Source: Kibdelosporangium aridum
GTDB lineage: Bacteria > Actinomycetota > Actinomycetes > Mycobacteriales > Pseudonocardiaceae
Direction of reading: 5' to 3'
Length of the DNA: 64,000 bases
NCBI RefSeq assembly: GCF_900176515.1
Contig: NZ_FWXV01000011.1
Span: forward strand, 248,001-312,000
Part shown: positions 29,544-61,297 of the stretch, piece by piece
Numbering within the stretch: position 1 is the first letter of the stretch
Layout of the letters: each line of letters begins with the position of its first letter
Program-made: the position numbers and the translations under genes
Notes under the pieces: generated by a model
Databases searched by the model: none
Seen by the model: only the letters and a program-made list of their open reading frames with translations
Told to the model about the DNA's origin: nothing

Positions 29544-30101
29544 CTAAGTACGCGGTCGCTGACTTTCCTGCTGTTCGCCGAGTTCCATGCCGGCCTGTCC
29601 GGTGGCCATCCTGAACACTCCGGCGCGGATACGCTCATGAAGTCCTTGTGGTGCCCGATCACCCCCGGCTCGCGCGAACAGGCGCTTCAGGCGTTCGACA
29701 CGGGCCAGGAGTTCCAGGCAAGGCGTGCACTCGTCCAGATGCTCCAGAAGCTCCTCTTGGCGCTCCAGAGCCAACTCGACATCAACGAGGAGCCACAGCT
29801 CGTTTTCCTCGATGTGCGGACTCTGACGCGAGCGGAAATGTGCCGCGATCGAGCTGTGCCGGAGGCCGACCATTTCCGCGGCGGTGCCCGGATTTACGCG
29901 CAACAGCAGGGGTTGAAGTGACAACAGCACATCCCGAAGCCGCGGAACGCTGCTCGGTCCGCCGAGAGTGGATGCCGCAGCGAACAAGTCCTGCAGTGAC
30001 ATGACCGTTTCGGTCGTTTCGCTGGCAAGAACTGTGAGGACCGGGACCGAATCTGGTTGATCCATGAACTGGTCGTAGGCGTTGGCGAGAGCGTCTGTCA
30101 T
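29544..30101 (-). CDS. Small cytoplasmic protein with H-x3-C-x2-C (ZAS-like) motif, partner of the caspase-NTPase
   Basis: 185 residues from ATG 30101, overlapping the upstream stop as ATGA. Residues 100-140 (ELWLLVDVELALERQEELLE then HLDECTPCLELL) give H121-x3-C125-x2-C128, the pattern of zinc-binding anti-sigma domains (zf-HC2). There is no membrane segment, and no sigma factor is adjacent, so an anti-sigma role is not supported. The N-terminal 90 residues are helical and match nothing I know. Strict coupling to the caspase gene suggests it is a regulator, sensor or substrate of that protease; this is inference. Confidence 0.75.
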   Translation of the reverse strand: MTDALANAYDQFMDQPDSVPVLTVLASETTETVMSLQDLFAAASTLGGPSSVPRLRDVLLSLQPLLLRVNPGTAAEMVGLRHSSIAAHFRSRQSPHIEENELWLLVDVELALERQEELLEHLDECTPCLELLARVERLKRLFARAGGDRAPQGLHERIRAGVFRMATGQAGMELGEQQESQRPRT

Positions 30102-31405
30102 GCGTCACCCCGGCAGGCCACATCCGCGAGGGCGCGCGCCACCAGCCAGCTGCCTGCCGACCGGTCGACCAAGTCGGGAACGTCGGACTCGTGAACGGCA
30201 CGTCTGGTGAAGTACGAGGTAAGTTCTGCTCGCGTCGGCAGGCAAGTTCGCACGGTTGTTCCGTGTGAGCCGACTGTGACCACCTGAACGGGGACATCGC
30301 GCAGGGACAGCAGTTGCTCCACGACGTGTTCATTGGCAGGCGCGGCGTCCATGACGACCGTGATCCGCCCGGTAGACCTGGTCGACATCCACTGGAGCAG
30401 TTCGGGCAAGGTGTGCGAGGGCGAGCCCAACTGCCGTGCGATCTTGACGGCGATGTCATCGGGCGAATCGCGCTCGGCGGGAAAGACCACGGCGTTGACG
30501 AACCGGCGGCCCAACGCTTTGGCCAGGTACGCCAAGGCCGTGGACTTCCCGCTACCGGCCGGCCCGCTGATCGTGACCAGTCTGTCCTCGGAGGCAACGG
30601 CCCTGGCCAGGTGACGAACCGGTCGCGTCAAGACGCACGACCGCGTCAGGTCTGTGATGATCGCGTCGGTGAGATCGTCCATCGCCGACCGCACAGAATT
30701 GCGCGCCAGCCACAGGGCCTCATCGCTGTACGGCACAGCTCGGTTGCTGTCAAAGGCAAGGTGCTGAGCTGTCTGCTTAGGACAATGGTCGGCAATGAGC
30801 CGCTTGAGGTCCGCGCATCGCAGGTGACTGCTGCTTCGGGGTTGGCCTTTGCGCAATATCGCGGTCAACGCGCGGGTGAAACAGCCGTCCGCCGCCGTTC
30901 TGTCGTCCGTGGCCGTCAGCACCTCGAATCTTCGGCCCGCCGAGCCGATCACTCGTACCCAGTGCTCCGCGGCCTGCGCCGCTCCCAATCCGGCGTGGCA
31001 CGTGTCAATCAGGACGACAAGGCCGTCGAGCATCGAGTACTCTCGGACGGCTTCCTTGATCCGTTGTCCGAGCAAGTACGCACGTGCCGAGTTCGCCGGG
31101 CACGCGCTGTCGCGGGCCATGACGTAGAAGTCCTCGGACACGTACTCGCCATGACCCACCACGGCGAGGATGAGCGTCTCCTCAGCCTCCGAAGCCATCT
31201 GCACAGCCCGGTCGATCGCCGAGTCGAGTTGCGCGACCGTCGGGTCGATCAGCAGCTCCGCGTGGTCGCATGCCCCAATAGCCGGATCCGCCAGGACCGC
31301 GTGCAGATCGTGGGCGATTCCTGGCAGGAACGAGAGGCCAGGCAGCGTGTCGCATTGAGATCCGACGACCAGCGCACGTCTGCCTGCCACCCGTACAGGA
31401 TCCAT
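30098..31405 (-). CDS. Caspase-fold (C14) peptidase fused to a P-loop NTPase
   Basis: 435 residues from ATG 31405. Residues 10-225 have the caspase p20 layout: RALVVGSQCD start, catalytic His85 in AVVGHGEYVS and catalytic Cys136 in VVLIDTCHAGL. A linker follows, then an NTPase with Walker A GPAGSGKS (281-288) and a hydrophobic strand ending in Asp353 (ITVVMDAAP) as Walker B. The protein stops soon after, without the TPR, WD40 or NB-ARC repeats many such proteins carry. Fusions of caspases with STAND-like NTPases occur in bacterial conflict and cell-death systems; that role here is inferred. The second gene of the operon is the zinc-finger-like protein. Confidence 0.85.
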   Translation of the reverse strand: MDPVRVAGRRALVVGSQCDTLPGLSFLPGIAHDLHAVLADPAIGACDHAELLIDPTVAQLDSAIDRAVQMASEAEETLILAVVGHGEYVSEDFYVMARDSACPANSARAYLLGQRIKEAVREYSMLDGLVVLIDTCHAGLGAAQAAEHWVRVIGSAGRRFEVLTATDDRTAADGCFTRALTAILRKGQPRSSSHLRCADLKRLIADHCPKQTAQHLAFDSNRAVPYSDEALWLARNSVRSAMDDLTDAIITDLTRSCVLTRPVRHLARAVASEDRLVTISGPAGSGKSTALAYLAKALGRRFVNAVVFPAERDSPDDIAVKIARQLGSPSHTLPELLQWMSTRSTGRITVVMDAAPANEHVVEQLLSLRDVPVQVVTVGSHGTTVRTCLPTRAELTSYFTRRAVHESDVPDLVDRSAGSWLVARALADVACRGDA

Positions 31406-31410
31406 GTTCG

Positions 31411-31425
31411 TAGCTTCCGAAGCTA
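31411..31425. promoter_or_regulatory. 7-1-7 palindrome at the caspase gene promoter
   Basis: TAGCTTC-C-GAAGCTA is a perfect palindrome, five bases upstream of the caspase-NTPase start codon. It sits where a repressor would block transcription or translation of the two-gene operon. Confidence 0.45.
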
Positions 31426-58797: not shown

Positions 58798-59670
58798 GTG
58801 TACGACGACGTGCATACTCGAAGTCTGTTCGCCCTGCTCACGTTGACGATCGCCACGCTTGTCAGTCCGGCACAGGCACAGGCGGCCGCCAATCCCTACG
58901 AACGCGGTCCCGCTCCTACCGTCGCCAGTATCGAGGCGTCCCGCGGACCGTTCGCCATCGCGCAGACCACTGTGGCGGCGAGTGCTGTCCGAGGGTTCGG
59001 CGGCGGCACGATCTACTACCCGACATCCACCAGTGAGGGCACGTTCGGTGCCGTCGCGATCTCCCCCGGATTCACCGCGCGCCAAACCAGCGTCGCCTGG
59101 TACGGCCCGCGGCTGGCCTCCCAGGGGTTCGTGGTGATCACCATCGACACCCTGTCCACATTGGACCAGCCGGACCAGCGCGGTGCTCAACTGCTTGCGG
59201 CACTGGACTATCTGGTGCAGACCAGTTCCGTCCGCTCAAGGATCGACGGCACCCGGCTCGGCGTGATGGGCCACTCGATGGGCGGCGGTGGCAGCCTGCG
59301 AGCCGCGGCCACGCGGCCGGCTCTTCAGGCGGCCATTCCGCTCACCGCGTGGCACACCACCAAGAACTGGTCATCGGTACAGGTTCCGACGCTCATCGTC
59401 GGTGCCGAGAACGACACGACAGCGTCGGTCAGCGCGCATTCCGAGCCGTTCTACCAAAGCCTCTCGTCCACACCGGACAAGGCATACCTTGAACTCAACA
59501 ACGCCGGCCATTCCGCGCCGACATCCGCCAACACCACGATCGCGAAGTACAGCATCTCGTGGTTGAAGCGGTTCATCGACAACGACACCCGCTACGAACA
59601 GTTCCTCTGCCCGCCACCACCACCGAGTTCACTGATCGAGGAGTACCGGCACACATGCCCGCACTCCTGA
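58798..59670 (+). CDS. Secreted cutinase / PET-hydrolase homologue
   Basis: 290 residues from GTG 58798; GTG 58810 is an alternative. Signal peptide ([21 protein letters not shown]); mature start [11 protein letters not shown] closely resembles Thermobifida cutinases. Catalytic triad: Ser160 in GHSMGGGGS, Asp206 in AENDTT, His238 in AGHSAPT. The wobbling Trp185 in TAWHTTKNW is kept, as is the C-terminal disulfide (Cys271, Cys287). His precedes Ser160 as in cutinases, while Ser follows His238 as in Ideonella PETase. The enzyme hydrolyses cutin-like polyesters and probably PET; activity is inferred from the family. Confidence 0.93.
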
Positions 59671-59747: not shown

Positions 59748-60083
59748 ATGAAGTATGTCTTGCTGATCTGTGACGATGAGAAGGCGTCGCCGACCATGGA
59801 GGAGATCGCGGCGGACCCGGCGTACCAAGCCTTTGACGCGGAGGTGGAACGGCGGGGAGCCAGCCTCGGTGGCGCGCGGCTGCGTCCGGTGGCCAGTGCG
59901 ACGACGGTGCGCGTCCGCGACGGAGAGACTCTGGTGTCCGATGGCCCGTTCGCGGAGACGAAGGACTTCGTCGGCGGTATCGACATCATCGAATGTGCCG
60001 ATCTGGACGACGCGATCGCGATCGCGGCGCGGCACCCCTACGCGAGCTGGGGTTGTGTCGAAGTCCGCCCAGTGTGGGAATGA
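59748..60083 (+). CDS. DGPF/YCII-domain protein, partner of ECF42 sigma factor
   Basis: 111 residues from ATG 59748. [13 protein letters not shown] and [20 protein letters not shown] carry the DGPF motif. The stop overlaps the sigma-factor start as ATGA. DGPF genes are the usual partners and targets of ECF42 sigma factors; their biochemical role is unknown. Confidence 0.88.
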
Positions 60084-61297
60084 CCGCGCCAGAGGCGGTT
60101 CGAGCAGCGGTCGATGCGGCGTATCGGCACGAGTGGGGCCAAGTCGTCGCCACGCTGATCGGGCTGACCGGAGACTGGGATCTGGCAGAGGACTGCGCGC
60201 AGGACGCGTTCGCCGCCGCGCTGACCACGTGGGCGCGCGATGGGGTTCCAGATCGTCCGGGTGCGTGGCTCACCACGACGGCCCGGCACCGGGCGATCGA
60301 TCGGCTGCGGCGTGACACGACGGGGGCGGCGAAGGTTCGGCAGCTCGCTGTACTGGAGCGCAGTCCGATTGAGCCGCCAGCCGAGGAGATTCCGGACGAG
60401 CAGCTGCGACTGATCTTCACGTGCTGCCATCCCGCACTGCCGTTCCCCGCGCGGGTCGCCCTGACGTTACGCACGTTGGCGGGACTGAGCACAGCTGAAA
60501 TCGCCAAGGCGTTCCTGACCGCCGAGCCGACGATGGCGCAACGCCTGGTACGCGCCAAGCGCAAGATCGTCGAAGCCGGGATACCGTACCGGGTTCCACC
60601 AGCGGAGCTCCTGCCGCAGCGGCTGACAGCCGTCCTCGCGGTGCTCTACCTGATCTTCAACGAGGGCTACGACGAACAGGACGGACGCAGGGCGCTCGCG
60701 GCTGAGGGAATCCACCTCACCCGGGTACTGGTTCATCTGATGCCGCGTCAGCCCGAGGCACGCGGCCTGTTGGCGTTGATGTTGCTGCTCGAAGCCCGGC
60801 GCGCGAATCGCACCGACGACGGCGTGCTGGTCACGTTGGAGAACCAGGACCGATCCCTGTGGGACCGCGCCCTGATCGCCGAAGGCGTTGCGACGCTTGA
60901 CGAAGCGTTGGCCATGCGGCGTCCCGGGCCGTACCAGGTACAGGCCGCGATTGCCGCCTGTCACGCTACGGCGCCTGACGCCGCGGCCACCGACTGGCCG
61001 CAGATCGCCGCCCTCTACGCAGAGCTCGCGCGGTTGGCGCCGTCCCCCGTGGTCGACCTCAACCGCGCCGTGGCGATCGCGATGGCCGACGGCATCTCCG
61101 CCGGACTCGCCCTCGTCGACGAGCTCGCCGAGTCCGGCAAGCTCGATGGCTACTACCTGCTGCCCGCGACCCGCGCTGATCTTCTCCGCCGGGACGGCCG
61201 CCTCGCCGAGGCCGCCAGGTACTACGAAGAGGCACTGGGTCTGGCGCCGACCGACGCCGAACGCCGCTATCTGACGAGTCGCCTTTCTGCGCTCTGA
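60080..61297 (+). CDS. ECF42-type RNA polymerase sigma factor with C-terminal TPR-like extension
   Basis: 405 residues from ATG 60080. Region sigma-2 includes [18 protein letters not shown] and [17 protein letters not shown]; sigma-4 includes [35 protein letters not shown] helical extension of about 220 residues follows ([16 protein letters not shown]-like segment to [18 protein letters not shown]), the mark of ECF42 sigma factors, which lack an anti-sigma and are regulated through this extension. Coupled to the DGPF gene. Confidence 0.9.

What the first reader, a model, noticed from the sequence alone, without database searches (positions are those of the whole stretch)
29544..31425. Two-gene caspase-NTPase plus zinc-finger-like operon with its own palindrome
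A bacterial caspase domain (His85, Cys136) is fused to a P-loop NTPase (Walker A 281-288) that stops without the usual sensor repeats. It is coupled by ATGA to a 185-residue protein with H121-x3-C125-x2-C128, and a perfect palindrome (TAGCTTC-C-GAAGCTA) sits five bases before the caspase start. Caspase-STAND-type proteins are known in bacterial conflict or cell-death systems. I do not know this precise pair. Inference: the small protein is the sensor, inhibitor or substrate that releases the protease.
Basis: partly seen in the sequence, partly recalled or inferred. Interest (0 to 1): 0.75.

Follow-up and report, generated by a model that had tools for sequence, protein, structure and literature searches.

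The report
Split caspase-STAND protein with anti-sigma tail
Two overlapping genes in an actinomycete encode the two halves of what relatives make as one cell-death-type protease-switch protein, and the usual sensor tail has been replaced by a domain from a stress-response regulator (an anti-sigma factor), so the protease may control gene expression; only this one copy has been found.

Summary
The described genes are real: a caspase-NTPase (30098-31405, minus strand) overlapping by ATGA a 185-aa protein (29544-30101). The small protein is not an independent partner. Residues ~1-95 are the winged-helix domain that, in more than 30 related single-chain caspase-STAND-TPR proteins, follows the NTPase (profile match E 1e-12; AlphaFold model matches NLR winged-helix domains). 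Residues ~96-165 are an RsrA-type zinc anti-sigma domain (TIGR03988, E 1.7e-12, below the curated cut-off). So the pair is one caspase-STAND protein split at the NTPase/winged-helix linker, its TPR sensor replaced by an anti-sigma domain. That domain keeps H121-C125-C128 and most RsrA core residues but lost the redox-trigger Cys (position now P95/H96), so it should not sense disulfide stress as RsrA does. The caspase fold and His/Cys dyad are supported; the palindrome is unremarkable. No other genome searched has this split or fusion, and all ten relative species inspected keep a divergent alpha/beta-hydrolase gene that this copy lacks. Best mechanism (inferred): caspase-controlled release of an ECF sigma factor, as in Craspase/Csx30 and CalpL/CalpT. 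A recent frameshift or decaying paralogue is not excluded. In passing: relatives carry a conserved poly-C tract that looks phase-variable.

The parts
30098..31405 (-). caspase-NTPase chain, 435 aa: caspase domain ~1-237 (His85, Cys136), P-loop NTPase ~265-435 (Walker A 281-288; Walker-B Asp353 without the usual following acidic residue)
   Evidence: ORF and motifs; Pfam C14/AAA; NF047832 58.5 bits; fold match MALT1 Z 20.5; NTPase part low-confidence in the model
29817..30101 (-). small protein residues 1-95: winged-helix domain of the STAND module, homologous to the segment that follows the NTPase in single-chain relatives
   Evidence: match to Frankia chain E 2e-9, BLAST to L039/L052, family HMM 33.8 bits vs best shuffle 8.2, model pLDDT about 90 or more for residues 11-80 and match to NRC2 WHD residues 392-496, Z 8.7
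29544..29816 (-). small protein residues 96-185: RsrA-type zinc anti-sigma domain (H121-x3-C125-x2-C128; first ligand possibly H96) plus a low-confidence tail
   Evidence: TIGR03988 47.3 bits, E 1.7e-12; 45% identity to the genome's own RsrA; second-best TIGR03988 match of the genome; alignment; PDB RsrA 5frf E 0.012
30098..30101 (-). ATGA stop/start overlap joining the two ORFs, preceded by a GGGGTGA Shine-Dalgarno-like stretch
   Evidence: sequence; a random one-base indel in the linker region of relatives gives a 4-base overlap in 4.9% and with an SD-like motif in 1.5% of cases
29826..29834 (-). basic linker R90-S91-R92 between winged helix and anti-sigma domain: candidate caspase cut site (inference)
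   Evidence: sequence position; no cleavage evidence
   Evidence: 81 comparable palindromes in the window; absent from the relatives shown

Best explanation
The two genes encode one caspase-STAND switch split into two chains made from one message: caspase plus nucleotide-binding domain on the first, winged-helix domain plus an RsrA-type anti-sigma domain on the second. Shown here by homology: the domain order, the point of the split, the loss of the TPR tail and its replacement by the anti-sigma domain, and the loss of the redox cysteine. Inferred: the chains reassemble through the NTPase/winged-helix interface as in other STAND proteins; the anti-sigma domain holds an ECF sigma factor; when the caspase is activated it cuts the small protein (for example in the RSR linker) and frees the sigma factor, or the sigma-bound domain acts as the input that holds the caspase off. 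The trigger is unknown and, with the redox cysteine gone, is probably not thiol oxidation read by this domain. My confidence is about 0.85 in the anatomy and about 0.25 in the sigma-release mechanism; the figure below is for the whole statement.
For: Split caspase-STAND: the family profile built without the window matches gene 1 at positions 1-346 and gene 2 at 517-617 of 864, collinear; alignment runs up to both sides of the junction with the Frankia, Crossiella and G638 chains. Anti-sigma domain. Loss of redox Cys: alignment; PMC4960319 shows that RsrA Cys11His keeps zinc but no longer dissociates from sigma-R on oxidation. Retained core: 20 of 32 positions conserved in at least 90% of RsrA are kept, including C125, P127, C128, L129, K139, G146, A150, P151 and R159, while the other three conserved cysteines are lost. 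Precedent for protease-cut anti-sigma factors in immunity: Csx29/Csx30/CASP-sigma (PMC10028731) and CalpL/CalpT/CalpS (PMC12751052).
Against: One genome only. No sigma-factor gene at the locus; the nearest is about 30 kb away at window ~60.1 kb, and the genome has 115 sigma-region-2 matches. Sigma binding and cleavage are untested. The NTPase half has lost much of the family pattern after residue ~338, so switch function may be impaired.
Confidence: 0.45

Rival explanations
1. Decaying or recently broken paralogue: a duplicate of the caspase-STAND gene that lost its TPR end, picked up an RsrA fragment and then took a frameshift; no function.
For: Unique to one genome; the same genome keeps a single-chain paralogue; the divergent hydrolase partner is missing; family members do decay (G690 copy); NTPase half degenerate.
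Against: Both ORFs are open over long divergence (about 46% identity to relatives) with the caspase dyad, Walker A, winged-helix core and anti-sigma core kept; the junction forms an SD-ATGA overlap that random indels give in about 1.5% of cases; GC3 is in or near the range of the neighbouring genes, with the small gene lowest.
Confidence: 0.3
2. One single-chain caspase-STAND-anti-sigma protein: the split is a sequencing/assembly error or a very recent one-base indel.
For: Homology is continuous across the junction and one inserted base in the few bases between the two stop codons would join the frames.
Against: The indel would have to fall in that short stretch and by luck create an SD-ATGA overlap; the junction has no homopolymer longer than four G.
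Confidence: 0.2
3. The anti-sigma domain is only an adaptor or oligomerisation module; it binds no sigma factor.
For: No sigma gene in the operon; many RsrA-conserved positions changed (12 of 32).
Against: The fold-defining and zinc residues of the RsrA class are kept, and it groups with RsrA apart from the genome's other zinc anti-sigma candidates in a small tree with modest support.
Confidence: 0.25

Closest known systems
Single-chain caspase-STAND-TPR proteins of Pseudonocardiaceae and Frankia (family delineated here; 38 of 390 genomes of the host's family)
   Same: Caspase about 46% identical, same NTPase and winged-helix order
   Different: Relatives are one chain with TPRs (FHA insert in Amycolatopsis azurea) and, in all ten species inspected, a divergent alpha/beta-hydrolase gene; the window copy is split, lacks TPRs and hydrolase, and carries an RsrA-type domain
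EACC1-caspase two-gene systems (Kaur et al. 2020, PMC7159879)
   Same: Caspase domain of the same broad group with a variable C-terminal part and a two-gene layout
   Different: No EACC1 membrane gene upstream; here the partner gene is downstream and encodes winged helix plus anti-sigma domain; caspase scores below the family cut-off
RsrA and other zinc anti-sigma factors (PMC4960319)
   Same: H-x3-C-x2-C, helices and core residues of the RsrA class
   Different: Fused to a STAND winged helix, no neighbouring sigR, first zinc Cys lost
Craspase (Csx29/Csx30/CASP-sigma, PMC10028731) and CalpL/CalpT/CalpS (PMC12751052)
   Same: Protease encoded together with an anti-sigma protein; proposed logic the same
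   Different: No cas genes among the annotated neighbours and no sigma gene in the locus; a STAND module instead of crRNA or cA4 sensing

Membership tests
Caspase (peptidase C14) | caspase fold with His-Cys dyad | tested here: met
   Pfam C14 above cut-off; MALT1 Z 20.5; H85/C136 invariant in the alignment
EACC1-caspase system | 5' gene for the EACC1 membrane domain beside the caspase gene | tested here: not met
   The adjacent upstream gene is a divergent RibD_C protein
EACC1-caspase system | caspase over the NF047832 cut-off (140 bits) | tested here: not met
   58.5 bits
STAND NTPase | P-loop NTPase followed by a winged-helix domain | tested here: met
   Walker A; winged helix in the second chain
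STAND NTPase | Walker B with tandem acidic residues (hhhhDGhD in relatives) | tested here: inconclusive
   D353 present but read as MDAAP, second acid missing
STAND NTPase | C-terminal sensor repeats | tested here: not met
   TPRs present in relatives, absent here
RsrA (mycothiol-system anti-sigma-R) | CHCC zinc motif with N-terminal redox Cys | tested here: not met
   HCC kept; Cys11 position is P95/H96
RsrA (mycothiol-system anti-sigma-R) | TIGR03988 score over the 62.5-bit cut-off | tested here: not met
   47.3 bits
RsrA (mycothiol-system anti-sigma-R) | neighbouring sigma-R gene | tested here: not met
   No sigma-factor match near the gene; the true RsrA is on another contig, about 0.4 kb from a sigma match
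Zinc anti-sigma (ZAS) domain, broad sense | H-x3-C-x2-C and anti-sigma helices | tested here: met
Zinc anti-sigma (ZAS) domain, broad sense | binds and inhibits a sigma factor | not testable with these tools
   needs a binding or transcription assay
Craspase/Calp protease-anti-sigma systems | dedicated sigma-factor gene in the locus | tested here: not met
Craspase/Calp protease-anti-sigma systems | protease cuts the anti-sigma protein | not testable with these tools
   needs a cleavage assay

The most novel reading that the evidence does not exclude
A caspase-STAND death switch, outside any CRISPR system, rewired to transcription: its sensor tail replaced by a redox-blind anti-sigma domain so that caspase activation (or sigma occupancy) sets a sigma-factor response, with the STAND module working as two separately encoded chains.
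Probability: 0.25. Interest if true: 0.7.

Novelty: new variant of a known kind. Interest (0 to 1): 0.48.

Why it matters
If both chains work, it shows that a STAND switch can be divided between nucleotide-binding and winged-helix domains, and that apoptosis-type caspases can be coupled to sigma-factor control without CRISPR. It gives a small two-protein system in which caspase, switch and transcriptional output can be tested. It also leads to a family (caspase-STAND-TPR plus divergent hydrolase) with a conserved poly-C tract, which may be a phase-variable bacterial caspase.

Tried and rejected
Palindrome as specific operator: frequency no better than chance and not conserved. SigR-type promoter (GGAA-N16-20-GTT) in the 300 bases upstream: none. 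Sigma-70 promoter and terminator scan: none. Mobile or phage origin: no small-protein match in plasmids or phages, no caspase relative in viral contigs; only distant (28-35%) caspases on Streptomyces plasmids. Independent widespread small protein: its matches in 149 of 150 family genomes are almost all confined to the anti-sigma part and, in the 30 loci read, look like ordinary RsrA. Other caspases with an anti-sigma neighbour: none among the 107 loci scanned besides this one and true RsrA. Foreign composition: GC3 similar to the neighbours. RsrA rows for the structure job from viral contigs: none found, so the anti-sigma part of the model is low-confidence. Programmed ribosomal frameshift at the junction: no slippery heptamer seen there.

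Full report
WHAT IS THERE. On the minus strand a 435-aa ORF (30098-31405) and a 185-aa ORF (29544-30101) overlap by ATGA. The first has H85 and C136 in a caspase domain, a Walker A at 281-288 and then ends. The second has H121-x3-C125-x2-C128. The palindrome is at 31411-31425, but equally good ones occur 81 times in the window and none is seen upstream of the relatives shown.

THE SMALL PROTEIN HAS TWO KNOWN PARTS. Residues 100-162 match the RsrA model TIGR03988 (47.3 bits, E 1.7e-12; cut-off 62.5) and are 45% identical to the genome's own RsrA. It is the second-best TIGR03988 match in the genome after true RsrA (49 against 102 bits; third 28.6). Residues 1-99 alone found only one match in 395 genomes of the class besides itself, and that match lies inside a caspase-NTPase-TPR chain of Frankia (E 2e-9). 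A profile built from 32 single-chain relatives, window excluded, matches gene 1 at profile positions 1-346 and gene 2 residues 15-119 at 517-617 (33.8 bits; best of 2000 shuffles 8.2). Alignments with the Frankia, Crossiella and G638 chains continue to both sides of the junction...SAGSWLVARALADVACRGDA | MTDALANAYDQFMDQ... against ...SGGSWLTISLLADVAVREAAVEEPAGLAGFYASALDSV.... The AlphaFold model of the small protein gives a confident winged helix at residues ~11-80 that matches plant NLR winged-helix domains (NRC2 392-496, Z 8.7, 2.9 A over 93 residues) as well as ArsR-type winged helices. The pair is therefore one caspase-STAND protein in two chains, and the zinc domain stands where relatives have TPRs.

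THE CASPASE. Catalytic motifs are kept in the window and in 31 of 32 relatives by pattern. The predicted domain aligns to MALT1 (Z 20.5). The NTPase is weaker: Walker A is intact here, while 9 of 32 relatives have lost it; D353 lacks the second acidic residue seen in relatives, and this half of the model has low confidence.

THE ANTI-SIGMA DOMAIN IS RSRA-TYPE BUT PROBABLY REDOX-BLIND. Of 32 positions conserved in at least 90% of 30 RsrA sequences, 20 are kept. The C-x2-C and H are kept; the other three conserved cysteines, including the N-terminal trigger cysteine, are gone; the trigger position is P95/H96. In RsrA, Cys11His keeps one zinc but no longer lets go of sigma-R under peroxide (PMC4960319). 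If H96 is the fourth ligand, this is an HHCC-type domain that should hold a sigma factor regardless of thiol stress (inference).

DISTRIBUTION. The caspase-STAND family occurs in 38 of 390 genomes of the host's family, in 7 of 8 genomes of the genus, and in ten species in the GTDB contig scan (three further, far weaker matches were not counted). All other members examined are long single frames apart from one frame-broken copy (G690); none is split at this place. The window genome also has a single-chain paralogue with TPRs. No anti-sigma domain was found near any other caspase locus fetched (107 loci scanned). All ten relative species, and the paralogue, have a divergent alpha/beta-hydrolase gene next to the caspase gene (43-95% identical outside the window genome); the window copy does not.

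IS THE SPLIT REAL? One inserted base in the short stretch between the two stop codons would join the frames. Simulated random one-base indels in relatives produce a 4-base start/stop overlap in 4.9% and with a Shine-Dalgarno-like motif in 1.5% of cases. This favours an adapted, coupled pair but does not exclude a recent indel or an error; with a single known example it cannot be settled here.

MECHANISM. Shown by homology: the anatomy. Inferred: chains reassemble; the anti-sigma domain binds an ECF sigma factor; the caspase controls it by cleavage. Precedents for protease plus anti-sigma plus sigma exist in type III CRISPR (Csx29/Csx30/CASP-sigma, PMC10028731; CalpL/CalpT/CalpS, PMC12751052), and Kaur et al. 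2021 (PMC8195603) report ECF sigma genes beside EACC2-caspase genes. Against it: no sigma gene at the locus (nearest ~30 kb away; 115 sigma matches in the genome). From general knowledge of metacaspases, an Asp two residues before the catalytic Cys (D134 here) favours cutting after Arg/Lys; R90 and R92 in the linker are candidate sites (inference).

NEIGHBOURHOOD. Flanking genes are an M4 metallopeptidase with fn3 repeats, a GH92 glycosidase, a divergent RibD_C protein, a methyltransferase, secreted or surface proteins and a Fur regulator. None is a defence gene.

SIDE OBSERVATION. In relatives, a C-tract of 7-10 bases encoding HPPP-like residues lies at one conserved place in the TPR region. 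18 of 33 distinct genes have a run of at least 8 C, against 4.2 expected anywhere in the genes under synonymous shuffling, and run length differs so that the last TPRs are in frame in some species and out of frame, in either direction, in others. Runs of 9 or more C are very rare in two 12-Mb genomes (four and three places), and in each one of them is this gene. This suggests phase variation, though sequencing error in homopolymers was not excluded.

VERDICT. A real, coherent but so far unique rewiring of a known type of system: a new variant of a known kind.

Noticed in passing
L066-L099 and L053-L062 (e.g. L067 tract at CDS position 2279, L072, L091, L069, L073): Single-chain caspase-STAND-TPR relatives carry a poly-C tract of 7-10 bases at a conserved place in the TPR region; the run length puts the last TPRs in or out of frame between species, in both directions (18 of 33 genes have at least 8 C vs 4.2 expected). 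Looks like a phase-variable contingency tract.
   Followed up: partly
L053-L062 upstream flanks, L038:6780-7988: An alpha/beta-hydrolase gene stands divergently beside the caspase-STAND gene in all ten relative species, 43-95% identical: a conserved two-gene unit without a family name in NCBIfam.
   Followed up: partly
L096:3643-5379: The G690 copy of the caspase-STAND gene looks frame-broken after the caspase, and its hydrolase is split over two frames: a decaying unit.
   Followed up: no
L053, L055 (Amycolatopsis azurea, A. oliviviridis): An FHA domain is inserted between the NTPase and the winged-helix/TPR part of the caspase-STAND chain (FHA shown by Pfam for L053).
   Followed up: no
L066, L067, L070, L072, L091-L095: Nine of 32 family members have lost the Walker A motif while keeping the caspase domain: pseudo-NTPase switches.
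   Followed up: no
window 58798-59670 and 59993-61297: A PET-hydrolase-like esterase gene (Pfam PETase, E 5e-121) followed by a sigma factor with DUF6596.
   Followed up: no
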